Under the pieces are notes generated by a model. That model saw nothing but the letters and a program-made list of their open reading frames with translations. It had not been told where the DNA came from and searched no databases. From assembly GCF_024398015.1 (NCBI RefSeq), contig NZ_CP073747.1:3035001-3099000 (forward strand): a stretch of DNA of 64,000 nucleotides. The letters run 5' to 3'. Below, piece by piece: positions 1 to 44,151 of the stretch (positions within the stretch are counted from its first letter, which is position 1; each line of letters opens with the position of its first letter). This DNA is from Kordiimonas sp. SCSIO 12610. GTDB lineage: Bacteria > Pseudomonadota > Alphaproteobacteria > Sphingomonadales > Kordiimonadaceae. The translations under genes and the position numbers were made by a program.

Positions 1-88
1 GTTTTTCGTTCATGAATGACGTAATGACAGACACATTCTGTGCAAACGATTGCATCGCGCTTTTTAAATTTTCTTCAACTTCATCCAT
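1..88 (-). CDS. Flavin-reductase-like protein, N-terminal fragment
   Basis: The minus strand is open from an ATG at 88 to the window edge, giving 29 codons that start MDEVEENLKSAMQSFA. The stretch LKSAMQSFAQNVSVITS resembles the N-terminal 'FR-x-A-x-x-x-F-A-x-G-V-x-V-V-T' signature of flavin reductase-like (FMN-binding split barrel) domains. That resemblance was judged by eye over a short segment. A second ATG four bases downstream runs into a stop, so the first is the plausible start. The Shine-Dalgarno is weak. The rest of the gene lies outside the window, so the function is provisional. The 204 bases between this gene and the glmS terminator show no gene or clear signal. Confidence 0.45.
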   Translation of the reverse strand, partial: MDEVEENLKSAMQSFAQNVSVITSFMNEK

Positions 89-292
89 GTGTACTACCGT
101 CAACGAGACCAAATTTGCTACATGTCCAATCTATAAGCTATTGGCATAATTTTACTCATACGTACATCATCTATTATTCAGACCAGTCGAATTACCATCA
201 TAAATCTGTTATTTAGAGGAAATATCTCGCAGTATCAGTGCTTGCAGAAAACTGAAACCGCATATTGCGCCGATGTGCTAGCGGCAATAATC

Positions 293-36605: not shown

Positions 36606-38042
36606 ATGCCATCAGATGATAGTCCCTCATTAGATTTTTTCTTTTCCAATACCGACCTAGACGCAAATCGTACTCAGAGTATTTTAGATGAAACCCTGCA
36701 CGGTATGGATGACGGCGAATTATACCTGGAAACAACACAGTCAGAGTCGTTTACATTCGATGATGGACGATTGAAAGCAGCTACCTTTGATACAACACAG
36801 GGTTTTGGCCTCCGTGCCGTTGCTGAAGAATCCTCAGGATACGCTCATTCAAACGAACTGACGGAAGATGCCATTAAGCGAGCGAGCTCCACCGTTGGTA
36901 TTGTCAAAGCAGGTAAGGAAGGCACAATGAGTGCTGCGCCTGCGCGCTCAAACAAGCAACTATATTCAGATCAAAACCCTCTCGGAGGAATTGAGTTTGC
37001 TGAAAAAGTAGCCTTACTAGAGAAAATTGACGCCTACACCCGCGCTAAAGACGCAAGAGTAAAACAAGTTAGCGCATCACTACTTGGTAGCTGGCAAGCC
37101 GTTGAGATCATGCGCGCTGGCGGGCACCGTGTCCGTGATATTAGACCATTGGTCCGTTTAAACGTTTCCGTTGTTATGGAAAACGGCGACAGGCAGGAAA
37201 GTGGCTTTGACGGCGCCGGTGGACGGAGGTCCTATGACAACCTCTTCGATCCACAAAATTGGCAAGCGCAAGCAGACGAAGCTATCCGCCAAGCCGAAGT
37301 CAACCTTGAAAGTGTGGATACACCAGCGGGTGAAATGACCGTAGTTCTAGGCCCTGGCTGGCCAGGCGTTTTGTTACACGAAGCCGTCGGACATGGCCTG
37401 GAGGGCGATTTCAACCGCAAGAAAACATCTGCTTTTGCTGGTTTACTCGGTGAACGTGTCGCAGCACCCGGTGTTACAGTATTAGATGACGGCACAATCG
37501 AAGCTCGTCGCGGATCATTAAGCGTTGATGACGAAGGCACCCCGACCGAGCGCACCGTATTGATCGAAGATGGCATTTTGAAAGGCTATATGCAGGACCG
37601 CCTCAATGCCCGTCTCATGGGAATGCAGCCAACAGGGAACGGCAGGCGCCAATCCTTTGCGCATTCGCCGATGCCGCGCATGACCAATACCTTCATGTTG
37701 GCCGGTGACAAAGACCCCGCTGAAATTATTGCGAGTGTCGATGATGGACTTTACGCGGTTAATTTTGGTGGGGGTCAAGTTGATATTACCTCAGGTAAGT
37801 TTGTCTTTAGCTGCACCGAAGCGTATCGCATTAGAGGCGGTAAAATAGCGGAGCCCGTCAAAGGCGCGACCTTGATAGGTAATGGCCCTGATGTTCTGAC
37901 ACGCGTTTCAATGATCGGAAATGACCTGAAATTAGACAACGGTGTCGGAATTTGCGGCAAAGCCGGTCAAACAGTTCCTGCCGGTGTTGGTCAGCCGACC
38001 CTACGGATTGATGGCTTAACTGTTGGTGGCACTTCATTTTAA
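36606..38042 (+). CDS. tldD: TldD-family metalloprotease
   Basis: TldD and its partner TldE/PmbA form a protease that trims modified peptides such as microcin B17 and degrades unfolded peptides. From the ATG at 36606 the product has 478 residues. The zinc motif H-E-x-x-x-H is intact (LLHEAVGHGLEGDF, His258 and His263 in this numbering), and the MPRMTNTF, GGGQVDITSGKFVF and GICGKAGQTVPAGVGQP blocks are standard TldD. The longer frame starts ten codons upstream, but GGAAG lies eight bases before the ATG at 36606. TldE is not in the window. The stop overlaps the next gene's ATG by one base. Confidence 0.95.
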   Translation: MPSDDSPSLDFFFSNTDLDANRTQSILDETLHGMDDGELYLETTQSESFTFDDGRLKAATFDTTQGFGLRAVAEESSGYAHSNELTEDAIKRASSTVGIVKAGKEGTMSAAPARSNKQLYSDQNPLGGIEFAEKVALLEKIDAYTRAKDARVKQVSASLLGSWQAVEIMRAGGHRVRDIRPLVRLNVSVVMENGDRQESGFDGAGGRRSYDNLFDPQNWQAQADEAIRQAEVNLESVDTPAGEMTVVLGPGWPGVLLHEAVGHGLEGDFNRKKTSAFAGLLGERVAAPGVTVLDDGTIEARRGSLSVDDEGTPTERTVLIEDGILKGYMQDRLNARLMGMQPTGNGRRQSFAHSPMPRMTNTFMLAGDKDPAEIIASVDDGLYAVNFGGGQVDITSGKFVFSCTEAYRIRGGKIAEPVKGATLIGNGPDVLTRVSMIGNDLKLDNGVGICGKAGQTVPAGVGQPTLRIDGLTVGGTSF

Positions 38043-39466
38043 TGAGCAATGCTCCCGTTAAAATCATACGTGAGCGGATAAAGCTTCACCTTGCAGATCA
38101 GGGAGAAGCACAGTCGACATTGCAACAATGTGAGCAGGCTATAGCAGCGTATGAGAGTGTTCAGACACGCAACTATATCCCAGTTACTCCAATAAATGCT
38201 TTAAAACCTTTTTTAGATAAGAGTGCAGGCTCTTACCCAAGTTCAGATAAACCCAGGGGACAAGATCCGATTTCGCTACTTAGCGAGATTATTAGTAATC
38301 CTGAACTGGAAATTACCGATGAAGGCATCTCAAAAATCATCGCATCGGATGTTTTCCTCGATTACCCATTAACAACTGTTGCCACCTTATTCGCATATCG
38401 GAAGAATTTCGATCTATCGATTTTCTTAGATACTGCTCTCGCCAAAACGCAAAAAATAGAATCAGAAAAATTATCCCCCATATTCTGGGATTATCTTGTC
38501 GCATTCGCATTTTTTAAGTACCAACAAGAGCCATTATTGCCGTCGGATAAATCTGCAAAACTTGGGCACATAATTTCCGAGGTAAAAAAACAGCACCTTG
38601 AGCGAGGAATTCGCTTCACCCGAGAGGCATTATATTCCGCCATCAAGAACAATATCGCGCATAATTTTGAAAATATTGTCAAAGACTGTGTCACCGCAAA
38701 ACTACACGCAGACCAATTTGCTATCCCGTTCTACCCTGTAAATTTTCTCTTTTCGCGTGAATATATTGATAACCTTTTAAAACAGACCTCCCCTTTAAAA
38801 GGCATGCCTGTTTCTGAGGGGAAAAATAACGATCAATGTATCATTACTGCTTGTGATCAAGCCTATTTCGACAGGTATTTTCTAAAGTTCCTTCAGAAAT
38901 CTAACCTGAAAGGATGGGATCTTCATATCCACTGCGTTAATTTTCGACCAAATACAAAGCTGCTACATCAAGCAAGCGAAGAATACGGCATTTGCATTCA
39001 TGCATCCTTTGAAACATATCGGTTATCCACACATGGAGACGCTTTCGGCACATGGTGCGCAACGTCGCGCTTTTGGGTATTACCATCGCTACTCAAACGT
39101 TATCATCGCTGTGTTGTCTCTGACATTGATGGCTACCTTAAAACACACCTAATCCCAATAGATACTGACCCAGGTATCTATTCCCACACTCCGACAAAGT
39201 CCGATACACGGTTGCCGTGGAATAATATATACGCTGGCAATATGCTATTTGTAAGTAATGAGGCTATACAAAAACTGTGCAGCAAAATGGCTCAGTTTTC
39301 ACATTATCAGCTAATTAAAAATATCGAAGCCTTCCCCAAGGTGCATTATTTTGATCAGGCAGTCTTGCTGTCTTTCTGCACTGCCTACAACATACCCTTG
39401 CAGTATGTAGAGATGTTTTTTGAGCAAAATGACGTCAAAAATTTAGCCATTTCCAAAACAAGGTAA
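38042..39466 (+). CDS. Unrecognised protein with GT-A glycosyltransferase-like C-terminal half
   Basis: 474 residues; I do not recognise the full-length family. Residues ~1-260 are mostly helical and look TPR-like or scaffold-like (YLVAFAFFKYQQEPLL, REALYSAIKNNIAHNFENI). Residues ~264-474 resemble a GT-A nucleotide-sugar transferase of the GT8 kind. They hold a start strand CIITACDQAYFDRYF, a WDLHIHCVNF strand, a D-x-D candidate at 361-363 (CVVSDIDGYL), WNNIYAGNMLFVSN and a late HYFDQAVLL. The ATG overlaps the tldD stop (TAATG), so the two are translationally coupled. A halogenase-like gene follows 142 bases on. No signal peptide or membrane segment is seen. The glycosyltransferase reading is inference from pattern, not a match to a named enzyme. 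Confidence 0.6.
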   Translation: MSNAPVKIIRERIKLHLADQGEAQSTLQQCEQAIAAYESVQTRNYIPVTPINALKPFLDKSAGSYPSSDKPRGQDPISLLSEIISNPELEITDEGISKIIASDVFLDYPLTTVATLFAYRKNFDLSIFLDTALAKTQKIESEKLSPIFWDYLVAFAFFKYQQEPLLPSDKSAKLGHIISEVKKQHLERGIRFTREALYSAIKNNIAHNFENIVKDCVTAKLHADQFAIPFYPVNFLFSREYIDNLLKQTSPLKGMPVSEGKNNDQCIITACDQAYFDRYFLKFLQKSNLKGWDLHIHCVNFRPNTKLLHQASEEYGICIHASFETYRLSTHGDAFGTWCATSRFWVLPSLLKRYHRCVVSDIDGYLKTHLIPIDTDPGIYSHTPTKSDTRLPWNNIYAGNMLFVSNEAIQKLCSKMAQFSHYQLIKNIEAFPKVHYFDQAVLLSFCTAYNIPLQYVEMFFEQNDVKNLAISKTR

Positions 39467-39608
39467 CGACTGTTCTGTTGATGTTAACTTTCACATCACA
39501 GGCAGCTCTATATGGTCGGAACCATCTGAGAATATTGATGTAACACATACTTGAAGCAGGTTGATTTCTAATCAAACAAGTAAAATTATAGCTTGGTGTC
39601 GGGTTGAG

Positions 39609-41390
39609 ATGAAAAGAATAACTATGACCAAGCCAACGTCAACTAATGAGTTCAAAGACACCAATAACGCCGTCGATACAACCAGCGTTATTGACCCCAA
39701 TACCAATGCTCGTACCCACACCGTTGACGTTGTCATTATTGGGGCAGGCATCAGCGGTAGTATTCTTGGCTGTATCCTAGCGAGACATGGTCAAAAAGTA
39801 GCTATTTGTGAAGCCGGGGTTCACCCGAAATTTTCAATCGGCGAGTCGATGATTTTGGAGACCTCCGAAATTTTCAGATCGCTTGCAAAAGTGTATGATG
39901 TACCTGAGCTTGAATATTATAGCTCAGAGAACTTCTTTCCCAAAATAAGCACCAGTCATGGTGTTAAGCGTCACTTTAGCTATATTCACCACACAAGAAA
40001 CCAAACTCAAAACCCCGATCATGTTATTCAGGCTGTTATCCCTCAAGCACCCTACGGCCATGAAATTCATATTCACCGACAAGATAGCGATTATTTCCTG
40101 GCGTCCACAGCCGTTAAATATGGTGCAAAACTGTTCCAGAACACGAAAGTTGAAACAATTGATATCAATGATAGCGGTGTAATTGTTAAAACTGCGAATG
40201 ATGTTCTCAACGCAAAATATATTGTCGATGCGGGTGGTTTTCGCTCTATTTTGGCTGACCAAAACAAGCTTCGCACCAAAGATTTAAAAACACACGCCCG
40301 TGGTATTTTCACGCATATGATTAATGTACCTTCGGTGCATGAAACCAGTAATCCCCAGAGCAAATATGGTATTCCCTATGCACTCGAGGAAGGAACACTT
40401 CATCATATTTTTGACGGCGGTTGGATGTGGATCATCCCTTTTGACAATCATGCAGAATCGACAAATCCGCTTTGCAGTGTTGGCCTGATGCTGGACCCCA
40501 GAAAATACCCTGAGGATACATCCTTATCACCAGAGGAAGAATTCTGGGATTTTACCAAGAAATTCCCGAGCATGTATGCGCAATTACAGAATGCGAAATC
40601 CGTTCGTCCCTGGGTCCGTGGTGGCCGAATTCAATATAGTTCGAAAGAAGCACATGGCAGCAGATATAGCCTGTTGGGGCACGCGGCTGGTTTTATTGAT
40701 CCTTTATTCTCAAAAGGATTATACACCAGCATGGCGTCCATAATGGGGCTTGCTAAAGCCCTAATTAATGCCAAGAAAACTGGTAACTACACCCAAGAAC
40801 AGTTCAAAGACTGCGCGGATACAACGCTTCGCTATGTTCAAAACAATGACCGTCTTATTTCAAACGCTTACAAAAGTTTCCAAGACCCAAGGCTTTGGCA
40901 TCAATATTCAGTGCTATGGATTTTGGGGGCCTATTTGGAACTTGTGAAGCTCACGACCTATCGCTATCAACTGGAGCGCAAAACAAACAGTTTCGAAGAA
41001 AGCTTAAACTTCCCATTCCCAGAACTGAGTTTAGTTGGCGGGGGCTACGAACCTTATTTTGACCTCGCTGATAAAATGGATCAAAGTCTGAATAGCCTGG
41101 GTGCTGGAGCAGAAGCGGATATCAAACGGGTTACACTCGAAATGCAAAACCATCTGAATGAGGCCGATTGGATACCCTATTCGTTCCGAGAAATTGCAAA
41201 CGGTAAGAAACACCTTCCAAATCGAAAGTTTACCCACCGCCTGTTATTAAACAAGGGCGGGATTATGGGCGAACCTGAATTTAGAAAGCATTTTTATGAA
41301 GACCTTACTCTTTTCGACCTTGCGAGAAAAATGTTCTCTGAAAAACTTAAATATTCCCGAAATGCTATCCGAAAACACGGAAGCAATTAA
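39609..41390 (+). CDS. Flavin-dependent halogenase-like FAD protein
   Basis: 593 residues from this ATG. A Rossmann FAD site (VVIIGAGISGSILG, GxGxxG at 45-50) is followed by FSIGES. The halogenase signature W-x-W-x-I-P is present (GWMWIIPF, 272-277), as is the F-x2-P-x2-S-x-G motif (FIDPLFSKG, 362-370) that marks flavin-dependent halogenases. RQDSDYFLASTA is the usual FAD-monooxygenase loop. Known relatives use FADH2, O2 and chloride or bromide to halogenate aromatic or carrier-bound substrates; no carrier protein or flavin reductase is adjacent. The start is uncertain: in-frame TTG at 39561, ATG at 39609 and ATG at 39624 all lack a strong Shine-Dalgarno. The residues before the FAD motif are Thr/Asn-rich and probably disordered. 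It converges on the M1 peptidase, overlapping by 4 bases. Confidence 0.82.
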   Translation: MKRITMTKPTSTNEFKDTNNAVDTTSVIDPNTNARTHTVDVVIIGAGISGSILGCILARHGQKVAICEAGVHPKFSIGESMILETSEIFRSLAKVYDVPELEYYSSENFFPKISTSHGVKRHFSYIHHTRNQTQNPDHVIQAVIPQAPYGHEIHIHRQDSDYFLASTAVKYGAKLFQNTKVETIDINDSGVIVKTANDVLNAKYIVDAGGFRSILADQNKLRTKDLKTHARGIFTHMINVPSVHETSNPQSKYGIPYALEEGTLHHIFDGGWMWIIPFDNHAESTNPLCSVGLMLDPRKYPEDTSLSPEEEFWDFTKKFPSMYAQLQNAKSVRPWVRGGRIQYSSKEAHGSRYSLLGHAAGFIDPLFSKGLYTSMASIMGLAKALINAKKTGNYTQEQFKDCADTTLRYVQNNDRLISNAYKSFQDPRLWHQYSVLWILGAYLELVKLTTYRYQLERKTNSFEESLNFPFPELSLVGGGYEPYFDLADKMDQSLNSLGAGAEADIKRVTLEMQNHLNEADWIPYSFREIANGKKHLPNRKFTHRLLLNKGGIMGEPEFRKHFYEDLTLFDLARKMFSEKLKYSRNAIRKHGSN

Positions 41391-43072
41391 CGGCTACATT
41401 TGGCGCTTGTACCAAAATCCCTGAGCACAGACATATGTGGATCAATCTGATGGTTGGAATTCTCAGAAATCTCGATTGAGCCCTTCCCGCCAGGCATATT
41501 GACCAGTGTCATTGTACCATCAATCATAACAGGAACTGGCATTGGGAAATCGCCAGACTGTGTATTCGCCCAACTAAGCTCCAACAAATCTTCGCTCTGA
41601 TTAACCTTCAGTACGGGTAATGTGGCTTGCTTAAGGTAGGTGTCAAAAAGCCAGGCCATATCGCGCCCTGCTTCTTCGCTCGCGATCTTAACAAAATCCT
41701 CGGTATTTCGTTGCTGTGGCGTAATCGGATAGGAAAGCGCCCAAGGATCAACCGTGTCATAAAGTGCACGCCTTACAACGCGCCAGAATATCTCATCCCC
41801 AACCAATCGCCTGAATGTATGAATAACCCATGCGCCTTTAAAATAGGGGTCGTTATCTGACCAATAATCACCAAAAGCTTCGCCGTCCGGTACTACAGGC
41901 GTGCAATTCGCGATTTGATTGTAGCGCGACCACATATAGCTCGCATATCCCATATCACCGAGCACATGCTGGGCATAAACAGGTTGCATATAAAATCCAA
42001 ACCCTTCATGAAGCCAAAAGTCACGCGTTCCTTCCTGCGTCAACAAGTTGCCAAACCATTCATGGGAAAATTCATGCTGAATAAGCCAATCAAAACCATG
42101 CGGGTCCCGTTTAAAACCGTTGCCGTATCCATTCATAGTTTGATGTTCCATGCCAAGGTACGGAATTTCAACAATCCCGATTTTCTCATTACCCCATGGG
42201 TACGGCCCCAGCGTATCTTCAAAAAACGCCAATTGTTTCAGAAAATCGTCACGGATTAAGCCCTCGATTTTATCCTGATCGTCTGTCACATGATAAAAAA
42301 CGAGCGGGATGCCATCCGCACCACTAATTTTATTATGATGGGTTAATTCGTATTTTTTAAACGGACCAACATTTAAGGCCAAATGATAAGCGGCAATCGG
42401 ATTGACCGTCCGCCAATGGAAGGATTTGGTATCATCATCATTTTGGCGTTCTTCGATCAGCTTACCATTCATCACGGCAGATAAATGTTTCGGAACAGTA
42501 ATAACCATATCTGCGCCACTATCAGCCTTGTCATAAACGTGATCCTTGCACGGCCAATAAAGGTCACAACCATTGCCTTGCACCGCAGTACCAACCCAGT
42601 CCTGACCATCCGGTGTTTTCGTCCAGACAAATCCACCATCCCACGGCGCACGTTCAGCCACATGTGGGTGGCCTTGATATTGAACTGTTGTTGTAAATTC
42701 CATGCCCGCAGACATCTGTCGACCTGACAGTAACAGTTTCCCCCCTTCTTTTTTAAAGGGAACAGAGTTTCCATTGATTTTTGTTGCAAGGGTTTCAAAT
42801 CGCGGATCAAGATCAAGTTCAACAGTGGTCATCACACCCAACGATTTAGCCGTCATCGTAACTTCGCCGCGAATAAACTGGTTATCTGGCTGAACATCGA
42901 TTTGCAGAGCATAGTGCTTTACGTCGTAAAGACTTTGAAGCGGAGTAATGGGGCCATTTGTTTTTGCTGTTTGCGGATGGAGTTCCAATGTTTCAGCGCC
43001 TCGTACATCAAATACAAACACTGAGCCCGTCAACGCTATCGAAGCACAAAGCAATTTTAATTTTTGCATCAT
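41387..43072 (-). CDS. Exported M1-family aminopeptidase
   Basis: 561 residues beginning with a probable signal peptide (KLLCASIALTGSVFVFDVRGA). It is an M1 zinc metallopeptidase: HEFSHEWFGN holds His333, Glu334 and His337, and the third zinc ligand Glu356 is in WLHEGFGFYMQ, 19 residues after His337. The exopeptidase motif reads GMEH (308-311) in place of GAMEN/GGMEN. It lacks the long C-terminal helical domain of PepN, so it belongs to the shorter leukotriene-A4-hydrolase-like group. It overlaps the following membrane-protein gene by 4 bases on its upstream side. Confidence 0.92.
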   Translation of the reverse strand: MMQKLKLLCASIALTGSVFVFDVRGAETLELHPQTAKTNGPITPLQSLYDVKHYALQIDVQPDNQFIRGEVTMTAKSLGVMTTVELDLDPRFETLATKINGNSVPFKKEGGKLLLSGRQMSAGMEFTTTVQYQGHPHVAERAPWDGGFVWTKTPDGQDWVGTAVQGNGCDLYWPCKDHVYDKADSGADMVITVPKHLSAVMNGKLIEERQNDDDTKSFHWRTVNPIAAYHLALNVGPFKKYELTHHNKISGADGIPLVFYHVTDDQDKIEGLIRDDFLKQLAFFEDTLGPYPWGNEKIGIVEIPYLGMEHQTMNGYGNGFKRDPHGFDWLIQHEFSHEWFGNLLTQEGTRDFWLHEGFGFYMQPVYAQHVLGDMGYASYMWSRYNQIANCTPVVPDGEAFGDYWSDNDPYFKGAWVIHTFRRLVGDEIFWRVVRRALYDTVDPWALSYPITPQQRNTEDFVKIASEEAGRDMAWLFDTYLKQATLPVLKVNQSEDLLELSWANTQSGDFPMPVPVMIDGTMTLVNMPGGKGSIEISENSNHQIDPHMSVLRDFGTSAKCSR

Positions 43073-43584
43073 TCTCTCACCACTTTAAATCTATGCGCAT
43101 GGAAATAGGGAAAGCCAACGAACATGATACCCTGAATCATTATATCGATTAAAGTAGCCCCCCATGCAATCGGGTCACTATGCCAGCTATCTATGATCGC
43201 CAAGATGATAAAATAATTCGCAATGAAAAAAGCAATCACCAAAGCCCATAATGTTACTCTGTATTTAAATTCTAACATCCAAGCGATAACGAATTTTGAG
43301 GCAAAGTAAAGGCTACACAATCCAATGCCATACATAACACCTACAAAGGTCAAAGCTTCTATTGTTTCTGGCTCAGGCGTCGGTAATAAATTCAACGGCA
43401 ATAAAACAAATGCATTTATGACGCTCAGCAAATTGTAAAATGACATATATACGCACAGACCCAAAAAAGCAGTTTTTAAATATCGTCCAATACTCAATAA
43501 ACTTGCTTCATGTTTTGAACAAATCGTGTTCTTGATAAACACACTAAAGGCCCGGTTTTTATCTCTAGCCAATTGTATATCCAT
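43069..43584 (-). CDS. Hypothetical four-helix membrane protein
   Basis: 171 residues with about four hydrophobic helices (TAFLGLCVYMSFYNLLSVI, LTFVGVMYGIGLCSLYFAS, VTLWALVIAFFIANYFIIL, IMIQGIMFVGFPYF). There are no recognised motifs. Its start region overlaps the preceding gene by 91 bases in another frame. AAAGGTCGAAT before the ATG is a fair ribosome binding site, and a TTG 29 codons in is an alternative start. The loop between helices 3 and 4 and the 'WAL' helix resemble the upstream neighbour, suggesting tandem paralogues. It is also coupled to the M1 peptidase gene by a 4-base overlap. Confidence 0.6.
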   Translation of the reverse strand: MDIQLARDKNRAFSVFIKNTICSKHEASLLSIGRYLKTAFLGLCVYMSFYNLLSVINAFVLLPLNLLPTPEPETIEALTFVGVMYGIGLCSLYFASKFVIAWMLEFKYRVTLWALVIAFFIANYFIILAIIDSWHSDPIAWGATLIDIMIQGIMFVGFPYFHAHRFKVVRE

Positions 43585-44039
43585 ATTCGACCTTTAGCAC
43601 TGGGCCCCGTTTCCAAGCGACAAAAATCAACAAAGAATGCACCTAATATATAACCGAGCATACTATATAATATGCCCACATATTCAGAGAAATTAATTGC
43701 GCTCCAATCGCTATTCCGATTTGAGACTAATTCAAACGCCGTAATAAAAAAGCTGAAATCACTAATCAATTTAAATATCAGTGCCCAGGTGGCGAATTTG
43801 AACGCTATTCCTTTCATTGAACTTCTATAAAAACAACTGACCAGCAAAACACAAATGAAACTGCGTAAGATATTGTATAGTATATCAGACAAGTTGATGG
43901 CAGACTGAGTTAACTCGCCTGTCACATCACTGACAGCCCAGACTATCAACTCATATAACCAAATACTAAATATTCCAGTAGCAAGCGATGCCCCTGACCA
44001 TAGTCCAAAAGACAATATCCATTTATCGCTTGTTTTCAT
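43494..44039 (-). CDS. Hypothetical four-helix membrane protein (paralogue of its neighbour)
   Basis: 181 residues from the ATG at 44039, chosen because GGGGGAAATC immediately precedes it. A longer frame would start at a GTG containing that Shine-Dalgarno. About four membrane helices are visible (LWSGASLATGIFSIWLYEL, ILRSFICVLLVSCFY, WALIFKLISDFSFFITAF, GILYSMLGYILGAFFVDF). The last ~30 residues run through the start of the downstream gene in another frame and look unlike a conserved tail, which could mean a frameshift or read-on past an ancestral stop. No function is recognised. Confidence 0.55.
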   Translation of the reverse strand: MKTSDKWILSFGLWSGASLATGIFSIWLYELIVWAVSDVTGELTQSAINLSDILYNILRSFICVLLVSCFYRSSMKGIAFKFATWALIFKLISDFSFFITAFELVSNRNSDWSAINFSEYVGILYSMLGYILGAFFVDFCRLETGPSAKGRIWIYNWLEIKTGPLVCLSRTRFVQNMKQVY

Positions 44040-44092
44040 GATTTCCCCCACTATCTAGTTTCATGAAACGCTGTTTTACGCACTCAATCAAG

Positions 44093-44121
44093 AAAAAAGG
44101 CCCTGAATACATTCAGAGCCT
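44093..44121 (-). terminator. Terminator of the CoA-transferase operon
   Basis: An 11-bp stem with one C-A mismatch (44098-44108 with 44111-44121, very tight loop) lies 30 bases past the scoB stop. On the minus strand it ends in TTTTTT. Confidence 0.75.
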
Positions 44122-44151
44122 ACAATTCGTTATCAGTTAATAATACAGAAG

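What the first reader, a model, noticed from the sequence alone, without database searches (positions are those of the whole stretch)
39609..41390. Flavin-dependent halogenase-like enzyme without an adjacent carrier or reductase
Both motifs used to separate halogenases from ordinary flavin monooxygenases are intact, which favours real halogenation chemistry. There is no adjacent PCP/ACP, non-ribosomal synthetase or flavin reductase, so a free small-molecule substrate is likely. The only flavin-reductase-like sequence in view is the fragment at the far left edge, about 39 kb away.
Basis: partly seen in the sequence, partly recalled or inferred. Interest (0 to 1): 0.5.

Follow-up and report, generated by a model that had tools for sequence, protein, structure and literature searches.

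The report
Stand-alone PltM/PrnC-type flavin halogenase
A bacterium of the Kordiimonas family carries a well-preserved enzyme of the kind that puts chlorine or bromine onto small aromatic molecules, but without the usual antibiotic-making genes around it, so what it halogenates is unknown; the enzyme type itself is already known.

Summary
Window 39609-41390 (+) encodes an intact 593-aa flavin-dependent halogenase (likelier start 39624). By sequence and predicted fold it belongs with PltM and CtcP and, by alignment, PrnC: the group acting on free-standing aromatics. All three halogenase motifs are present; the catalytic lysine is K120 (PltM K87, CtcP K98, PrnC K97) and both glutamates important in PrnC are kept (E84, E152). 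No carrier or flavin reductase lies beside it; the genome showed no NRPS condensation domain, no type III PKS and one strong ketosynthase. Of two PF01613 reductases, one crosses the window's left edge. The gene is at the same place in the sister species (78% identity, strong constraint) but in 0 of 27 other family genomes searched; it is cargo in a variable spot between tldD and a CoA-transferase gene. In trees it is a deep, unresolved branch, so relatives do not reveal the substrate. New member of a known kind; activity, substrate and partner reductase unproven.

The parts
39609..41390 (+). flavin-dependent halogenase gene, PltM/PrnC/CtcP type (likely true start 39624)
39741..39758 (+). GxGxxG FAD-binding motif (GAGISG, residues 45-50)
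39858..39860 (+). codon of E84 (= PltM E49, PrnC E60)
39966..39968 (+). codon of catalytic lysine K120 (= PltM K87, CtcP K98, PrnC K97)
   Evidence: PMC6424973, PMC12400496 and PMC10770391 passages
40062..40064 (+). codon of E152 (= PltM E115, PrnC E129)
40422..40439 (+). WxWxIP motif (WMWIIP, residues 272-277)
40692..40718 (+). FxxPxxSxG motif (FIDPLFSKG, residues 362-370)
41175..41354 (+). C-terminal tail (residues 523-582), 88% identical in the sister species; modelled with low confidence from residue 538
1..112 (-). 5' part of a PF01613 flavin reductase gene running off the left edge (167 aa from TTG in the genome); possible but unproven electron donor

Best explanation
The gene makes a two-component FADH2-dependent halogenase. 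FADH2 supplied by a separate flavin reductase reacts with O2 to a C4a-hydroperoxide; the W-x-W-x-I-P face keeps organic substrate off the flavin, so a halide is oxidised to HOX; [quoted passage not shown] The substrate is most likely a free, small phenol- or pyrrole-like compound from general metabolism or the environment, because the genome showed none of the assembly lines that often present substrates. Shown: family, motifs, catalytic residues, predicted fold, conservation in the genus. Inferred: catalytic activity, halide, substrate and reductase partner. The mechanism itself is taken from the literature on the family (PMC12400496, PMC6424973 and PMC8407142 passages).
For: Sequence: CtcP 9.7e-105 and PltM 3.2e-94 in the PDB, next 4.1e-28. 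Fold: VIA-align Z 40.9 (PltM, 2.4 A over 487 residues) and 40.5 (CtcP), then 26.6 (ChlB4, PltA). K at position 120 in 25 of 25 rows; WxWxIP in 25 of 25. Alanine at PrnC K97, E60 or E129 abolished or significantly reduced activity (PMC10770391 passages), and all three positions are kept here, whereas CtcP has Q and A at the two Glu positions. All 16 motif, catalytic and pocket positions listed are identical in the sister species; pN 0.149 against pS 0.739. No type III PKS match (control rings in 3 of 14 genomes), one strong ketosynthase hit (control 14 of 14), no NRPS condensation match in G000 (control 4 of 14, and 5 matches in the sister genome).
Against: No activity shown. Substrate-contact residues differ from PltM (P48 to L83, L111 to A147, L401 to I438, S404 to A441, N405 to Y442). 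The model's pLDDT is low near the active site (blocks 111-120, 141-150 and 361-370 average 58; 146-150 and 359-362 under 50) and past residue 538. The CtcP authors saw no tetracycline chlorination in vitro (PMC12400496 passages), so family membership does not guarantee easy activity. The PKS/NRPS absences rest on one profile each.
Confidence: 0.85

Rival explanations
1. A non-halogenating FAD monooxygenase or reductase that merely resembles halogenases.
For: It passes the Pfam cut-offs of the generic DAO (44.5 bits, cut-off 27.9) and FAD_binding_3 (35.0, cut-off 22) models, scores 87.3 bits with TIGR02032 (below its cut-off of 158.8), and its fold is shared with hydroxylases (one search lists KMO, TropB and PnpA entries at Z 20.9-22.2).
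Against: All three halogenase motifs, the catalytic Lys and both Glu are kept; PltM/CtcP stand far above every hydroxylase listed by fold, and by sequence the top four PDB matches are PltM and CtcP.
Confidence: 0.05
2. A halogenase acting on a carrier-protein-bound substrate, like PltA or Mpy16 (carrier dependence of these two recalled).
For: ChlB4, PltA and Mpy16 are the next-nearest solved relatives.
Against: They score 91-101 bits against 320-354 for PltM/CtcP; the protein has the C-terminal helical region shared by PltM and CtcP; no carrier protein among the neighbours scanned and no NRPS condensation match in the genome.
Confidence: 0.04
3. A horizontally acquired relic that is folded but no longer has a metabolic role.
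For: Sits in a variable cargo spot and is absent from 27 other family genomes searched; no pathway genes recognised beside it.
Against: Kept intact at the same place in two species whose synonymous sites are near saturation, with pN 0.149 and all 16 listed active-site positions identical.
Confidence: 0.06

Closest known systems
PltM, phloroglucinol (phenolic) halogenase of Pseudomonas protegens Pf-5 (PDB 6bza)
   Same: Full-length similarity (36% over 504 by BLASTP against the typed chain), same predicted fold (Z 39.6-40.9 over its entries), K87/E49/E115 all kept
   Different: Five of ten pocket or catalytic positions compared differ; no type III PKS match in this genome to make phloroglucinol; longer N- and C-terminus
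PrnC, monodechloroaminopyrrolnitrin halogenase
   Same: 35% identity over 548 aligned positions to the PrnB-linked genes in L064 and L070; K97/E60/E129 all kept; acts on a free pyrrole (PMC10770391 passages)
   Different: No prn genes recognised beside it; W413 is kept (W437) but A414, T417 and I418 are I438, A441 and Y442 here
CtcP, chlortetracycline halogenase (PDB 7xgb, 7v0b)
   Same: Best sequence score (354 bits); same predicted fold (Z 40.1-40.5); K98 kept; both run beyond PltM's end (CtcP ends in a helical hairpin, PMC12400496 passages)
   Different: CtcP has Gln and Ala where this protein has E84 and E152; CtcP has an adjacent FAD reductase gene, ctcQ (PMC12400496 passages)

Membership tests
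Flavin-dependent halogenase acting on free substrates (PltM/PrnC/CtcP group) | GxGxxG FAD motif | tested here: met
   GAGISG 45-50
Flavin-dependent halogenase acting on free substrates (PltM/PrnC/CtcP group) | WxWxIP motif | tested here: met
   WMWIIP 272-277; 25 of 25 rows
Flavin-dependent halogenase acting on free substrates (PltM/PrnC/CtcP group) | Fx.Px.Sx.G tunnel motif (PMC8407142 passage) | tested here: met
   FIDPLFSKG 362-370; complete in 21 of 25 rows, one residue changed in L008, L009, L012 and L013
Flavin-dependent halogenase acting on free substrates (PltM/PrnC/CtcP group) | catalytic lysine at the PltM K87 position | tested here: met
   K120; 25 of 25 rows
Flavin-dependent halogenase acting on free substrates (PltM/PrnC/CtcP group) | C-terminal helical region after the FAD domain, shared by PltM and CtcP (PMC12400496 passage) | tested here: met
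   Model residues 37-542 align to PltM 2-502 (6bzt_A)
Flavin-dependent halogenase acting on free substrates (PltM/PrnC/CtcP group) | tree placement with characterised members | tested here: met
   Inside the group, apart from three outgroup rows, at 100/99 support; position within the group unresolved. In one search the outgroup rows joined the haloarchaeal subgroup at 94/93, so the rooting differs
Flavin-dependent halogenase acting on free substrates (PltM/PrnC/CtcP group) | works with a separate flavin reductase | tested here: inconclusive
   Two PF01613 genes in the genome, neither adjacent; pairing not shown
Flavin-dependent halogenase acting on free substrates (PltM/PrnC/CtcP group) | halogenation of a free aromatic | not testable with these tools
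   needs an enzyme assay
Tryptophan halogenase (PrnA type) | full-length strong match to PF04820 and grouping with PrnA | tested here: not met
   59.8 bits against 632-639 for three genes of the sister genome; the two PrnA rows branch apart at 100/100
Carrier-dependent halogenase (PltA, Mpy16 type) | closest relatives are PltA/Mpy16, with a carrier protein in the gene neighbourhood | tested here: not met
   91-101 bits against 320-354; no carrier among the 26 window proteins scanned

The most novel reading that the evidence does not exclude
The Kordiimonas pair is the founding member of a new substrate class within the PltM/PrnC/CtcP group: a halogenase that serves no biosynthetic cluster and halogenates a free aromatic from primary metabolism or the surroundings, for signalling or defence, drawing FADH2 from a reductase encoded 39 kb away that, among the 31 genomes searched, occurs above 38% identity only in the same genus.
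Probability: 0.3. Interest if true: 0.5.

Novelty: new member of a known kind. Interest (0 to 1): 0.28.

Why it matters
Halogenases of this group are sought as catalysts because they act on free molecules, and PltM takes many phenols and three halides (PMC6424973 passages; PMC12400496 passages). A deep, natural branch with an altered pocket, in a genome without obvious assembly lines, is a clean test of whether such enzymes have roles outside antibiotic clusters. The gain is one more candidate enzyme, not a new principle.

Tried and rejected
Close relatives that would reveal the substrate: the genome-contig scan (pattern-based) gave one at 78% (same genus) and 11 at 30-42%; 385 genomes of the class gave the own gene and 9 partial matches of 28-32%; a profile over 398 genomes of the phylum found only the own gene at E up to 1e-60; plasmid records gave 14 records, all under 60% identity.

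A functional pair with the upstream gene P0002 (38042-39466): rejected, because the sister species keeps the halogenase without that gene beside it and has only a 27%-identical relative elsewhere. P0002 matches no Pfam family at E up to 1 and no PDB chain at E up to 1.

A phage origin: no match in the phage records at E up to 1e-10. Viral-contig relatives exist, but no grouping with the Kordiimonas pair was seen: L140 sits with PltM at 90/84 and L138 is unresolved.

The left-edge reductase as dedicated partner: its ortholog is 66% identical in the sister species and at most 38% identical in the 20 other genomes with a match at E up to 1e-10, of 31 searched. This co-occurrence rests on one genus, so it proves nothing. 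Fre- and SsuE-type reductases were not searched.

Rows dropped: of nine outgroup loci L015-L023 my script recovered full-length proteins for three only (L015, L016, L023), so six were left out of both trees; I left out six further rows (two PrnA, L004, L009, L012, L013). The dN/dS values rest on near-saturated synonymous sites and are rough. The neighbourhoods of L003-L013 were not examined. Promoter and terminator scans gave counts near those of shuffles and were not used. Families lower on, or missing from, the list are not thereby excluded.

Full report
What is there. The sister gene in L002 begins at the codon that matches ATG 39624, with no start codon further upstream in its frame, and the first 36 residues are only 19% identical between the two species against 92% for residues 37-120, so 39624 is the likelier start. 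Numbers below count from 39609.

Where it lies. The window is 3035001-3099000 of a one-contig 3.5 Mb genome, G000. Its only same-genus genome among those searched, G001, is the uncultured Kordiimonas sp. isolate of L002: the contig length, 1,250,774, and the gene position agree. So the organism belongs with Kordiimonas and its kin; no tool gave its name.

Family. Pfam Trp_halogenase scores 59.8 bits (cut-off 21) over two stretches; the generic DAO and FAD_binding_3 models also pass their cut-offs. Among solved structures the best are CtcP (E 9.7e-105) and PltM (3.2e-94 for 6bza), each aligned over about 490-500 residues; then ChlB4 4.1e-28, PltA 3.8e-26 and 5buk (Mpy16) 6.3e-25. A profile of 13 family members also puts CtcP and PltM far first, then PltA, ChlB4 and Mpy16. 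PrnC belongs too: two plasmid genes lying between prnB and a Rieske-protein gene align at 35% over 548 positions. Calling these two genes PrnC is my reading of that context.

Catalytic residues. K120 aligns with PltM K87, whose alanine mutant is inactive (PMC6424973, passages read), with CtcP K98 (PMC12400496, passages) and with PrnC K97. PrnC E60 and E129, where alanine abolished or significantly reduced activity (PMC10770391, passages), align with E84 and E152. K is found in 25 of 25 rows. E at position 84 is found in 6 of 25 rows (P0001, L002, PltM, both PrnC and Streptomyces L065); E at 152 in 17 of 25. WxWxIP is in 25 of 25 rows, FxxPxxSxG complete in 21 of 25. The use of these motifs to recognise halogenases was read in passages of PMC8407142 and PMC12645471. 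Pocket positions differ from PltM: L83 for P48, A147 for L111, I438 for L401, A441 for S404, Y442 for N405, with W437 and F123 kept for W400 and F90.

Fold. AlphaFold2 with 13 sequences: mean pLDDT 76.9, pTM 0.79; three active-site blocks average 58, and residues 1-31, 146-150, 359-362 and 538-593 are below 50. Foldseek ranks 20 PltM/CtcP chains first, E 1.3e-39 or better, then PltA 1.2e-24. VIA-align: PltM Z 40.9, 2.4 A over 487 residues; CtcP 40.5; ChlB4 and PltA 26.6. The tail 523-582 is 88% identical in the sister species; CtcP has a lid-like helical hairpin beyond PltM's end (PMC12400496, passages). Whether the tail here does the same is not known.

Trees. In both trees the two Kordiimonas proteins form one pair at 100/100 on a long stem of 1.28-1.40 changes per column, in an unresolved fork with PltM, PrnC, CtcP-like and other rows. 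The place of the outgroup rows differs between the two trees. No substrate can be read from the position.

Distribution and constraint. 2 of 98 genomes (own included) carry it at E up to 1e-20: the two of the genus; 0 of 27 other genomes of the family, G002-G028. In 385 genomes of the class the others found were 9 matches of 28-32% over the FAD domain only. Between the two species pN is 0.149 and pS 0.739, near saturation, so dN/dS (about 0.05) is rough but the constraint is plain; the neighbouring M1 peptidase gives pN 0.185 and TldD 0.071. GC is 43% in both species, within the 41-48% of the window.

The site. In the relatives coxB and tldD come before a CoA-transferase gene, with 1.0-8.1 kb of differing genes between tldD and the transferase: seen in 13 of 16 stretches fetched (in the other three no transferase was found; one of them ends 2.5 kb along at a contig end), and none of the 16 showed the halogenase or the M1 peptidase at E up to 1e-4 (genes of 11 intervals listed). 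In G000 and L002 the spot holds the halogenase and an M1 peptidase, plus P0002 in G000 and a different gene in L002. This reads as cargo gained before the two species split; that step is inference.

Partners. PF01613 flavin reductases: two in G000, three in G001. One straddles the window's left edge between ggt- and glmS-like genes (names mine); its ortholog in G001 is 66% identical and no match in the other genomes exceeds 38% (31 searched, 22 with a match, own and sister included). Whole-genome searches gave no type III PKS match in either genome (control rings in 3 of 14), one strong ketosynthase in each plus short weak hits (control 14 of 14), and NRPS condensation matches in G001 (5) but not in G000 (control 4 of 14). 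So phloroglucinol from a PhlD-type enzyme (name recalled) is not an obvious native substrate.

Other members' neighbourhoods. Of eight annotated plasmid contexts opened, three list a flavin reductase within 6-8 kb (L064, L065, L069). The two haloarchaeal ones (L067, L068) list no assembly-line gene either, so an orphan setting is not unique; that annotation is incomplete by the tool's own statement.

Literature. A search for Kordiimonas with halogenase found one paper, a sponge cultivation study seen in the listing only, so I found no report of this enzyme. That covers only the held open-access library and those two words; other searches made were made, of which I read passages of five papers (PMC6424973, PMC12400496, PMC10770391, PMC8407142, PMC12645471) and of PMC8269204.

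Verdict.

Noticed in passing
L140:4989-6629 and L138:5007-6449 (also L139, L141): Viral contigs encode PltM/CtcP-type halogenases (546 and 480 aa). The one in L140 lies, with a small cupin-like gene, between primase and exonuclease genes near DnaB, UvsX-like and DNA polymerase genes. It has no match in 50,697 phage records at E up to 1e-5, and VirX1 (PDB 6qgm per PMC8407142 passages) is not among its 26 PDB matches at E up to 0.1 (I did not check that 6qgm is in the copy).
   Followed up: partly
window 38042-39466 (+): P0002, 474 aa, no Pfam or PDB match at E up to 1. Relatives in Kordiimonadaceae share D-I/V-D-G and D-Q patterns that suggest a GT-A-like glycosyltransferase (motif reading is mine); 17 of 98 genomes have a match, own included, some with three.
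   Followed up: partly
window 38040-44151: The interval between tldD and the CoA-transferase gene is a variable cargo spot in the Kordiimonas family (13 of 16 relatives' stretches).
   Followed up: partly
G001:C1:258812-264434 (L049, L051, L053-L055): The sister genome has three full-length tryptophan halogenase genes in a row plus a fourth frame matched in two pieces; it also has NRPS condensation matches. G000 showed neither.
   Followed up: no
L066:7926-17161: In Chroococcidiopsis plasmid pB a halogenase of this group sits with genes annotated salicylate synthase, benzoate-CoA ligase, a KAS III-type enzyme and an NRPS, perhaps a halogenated-salicylate pathway.
   Followed up: no
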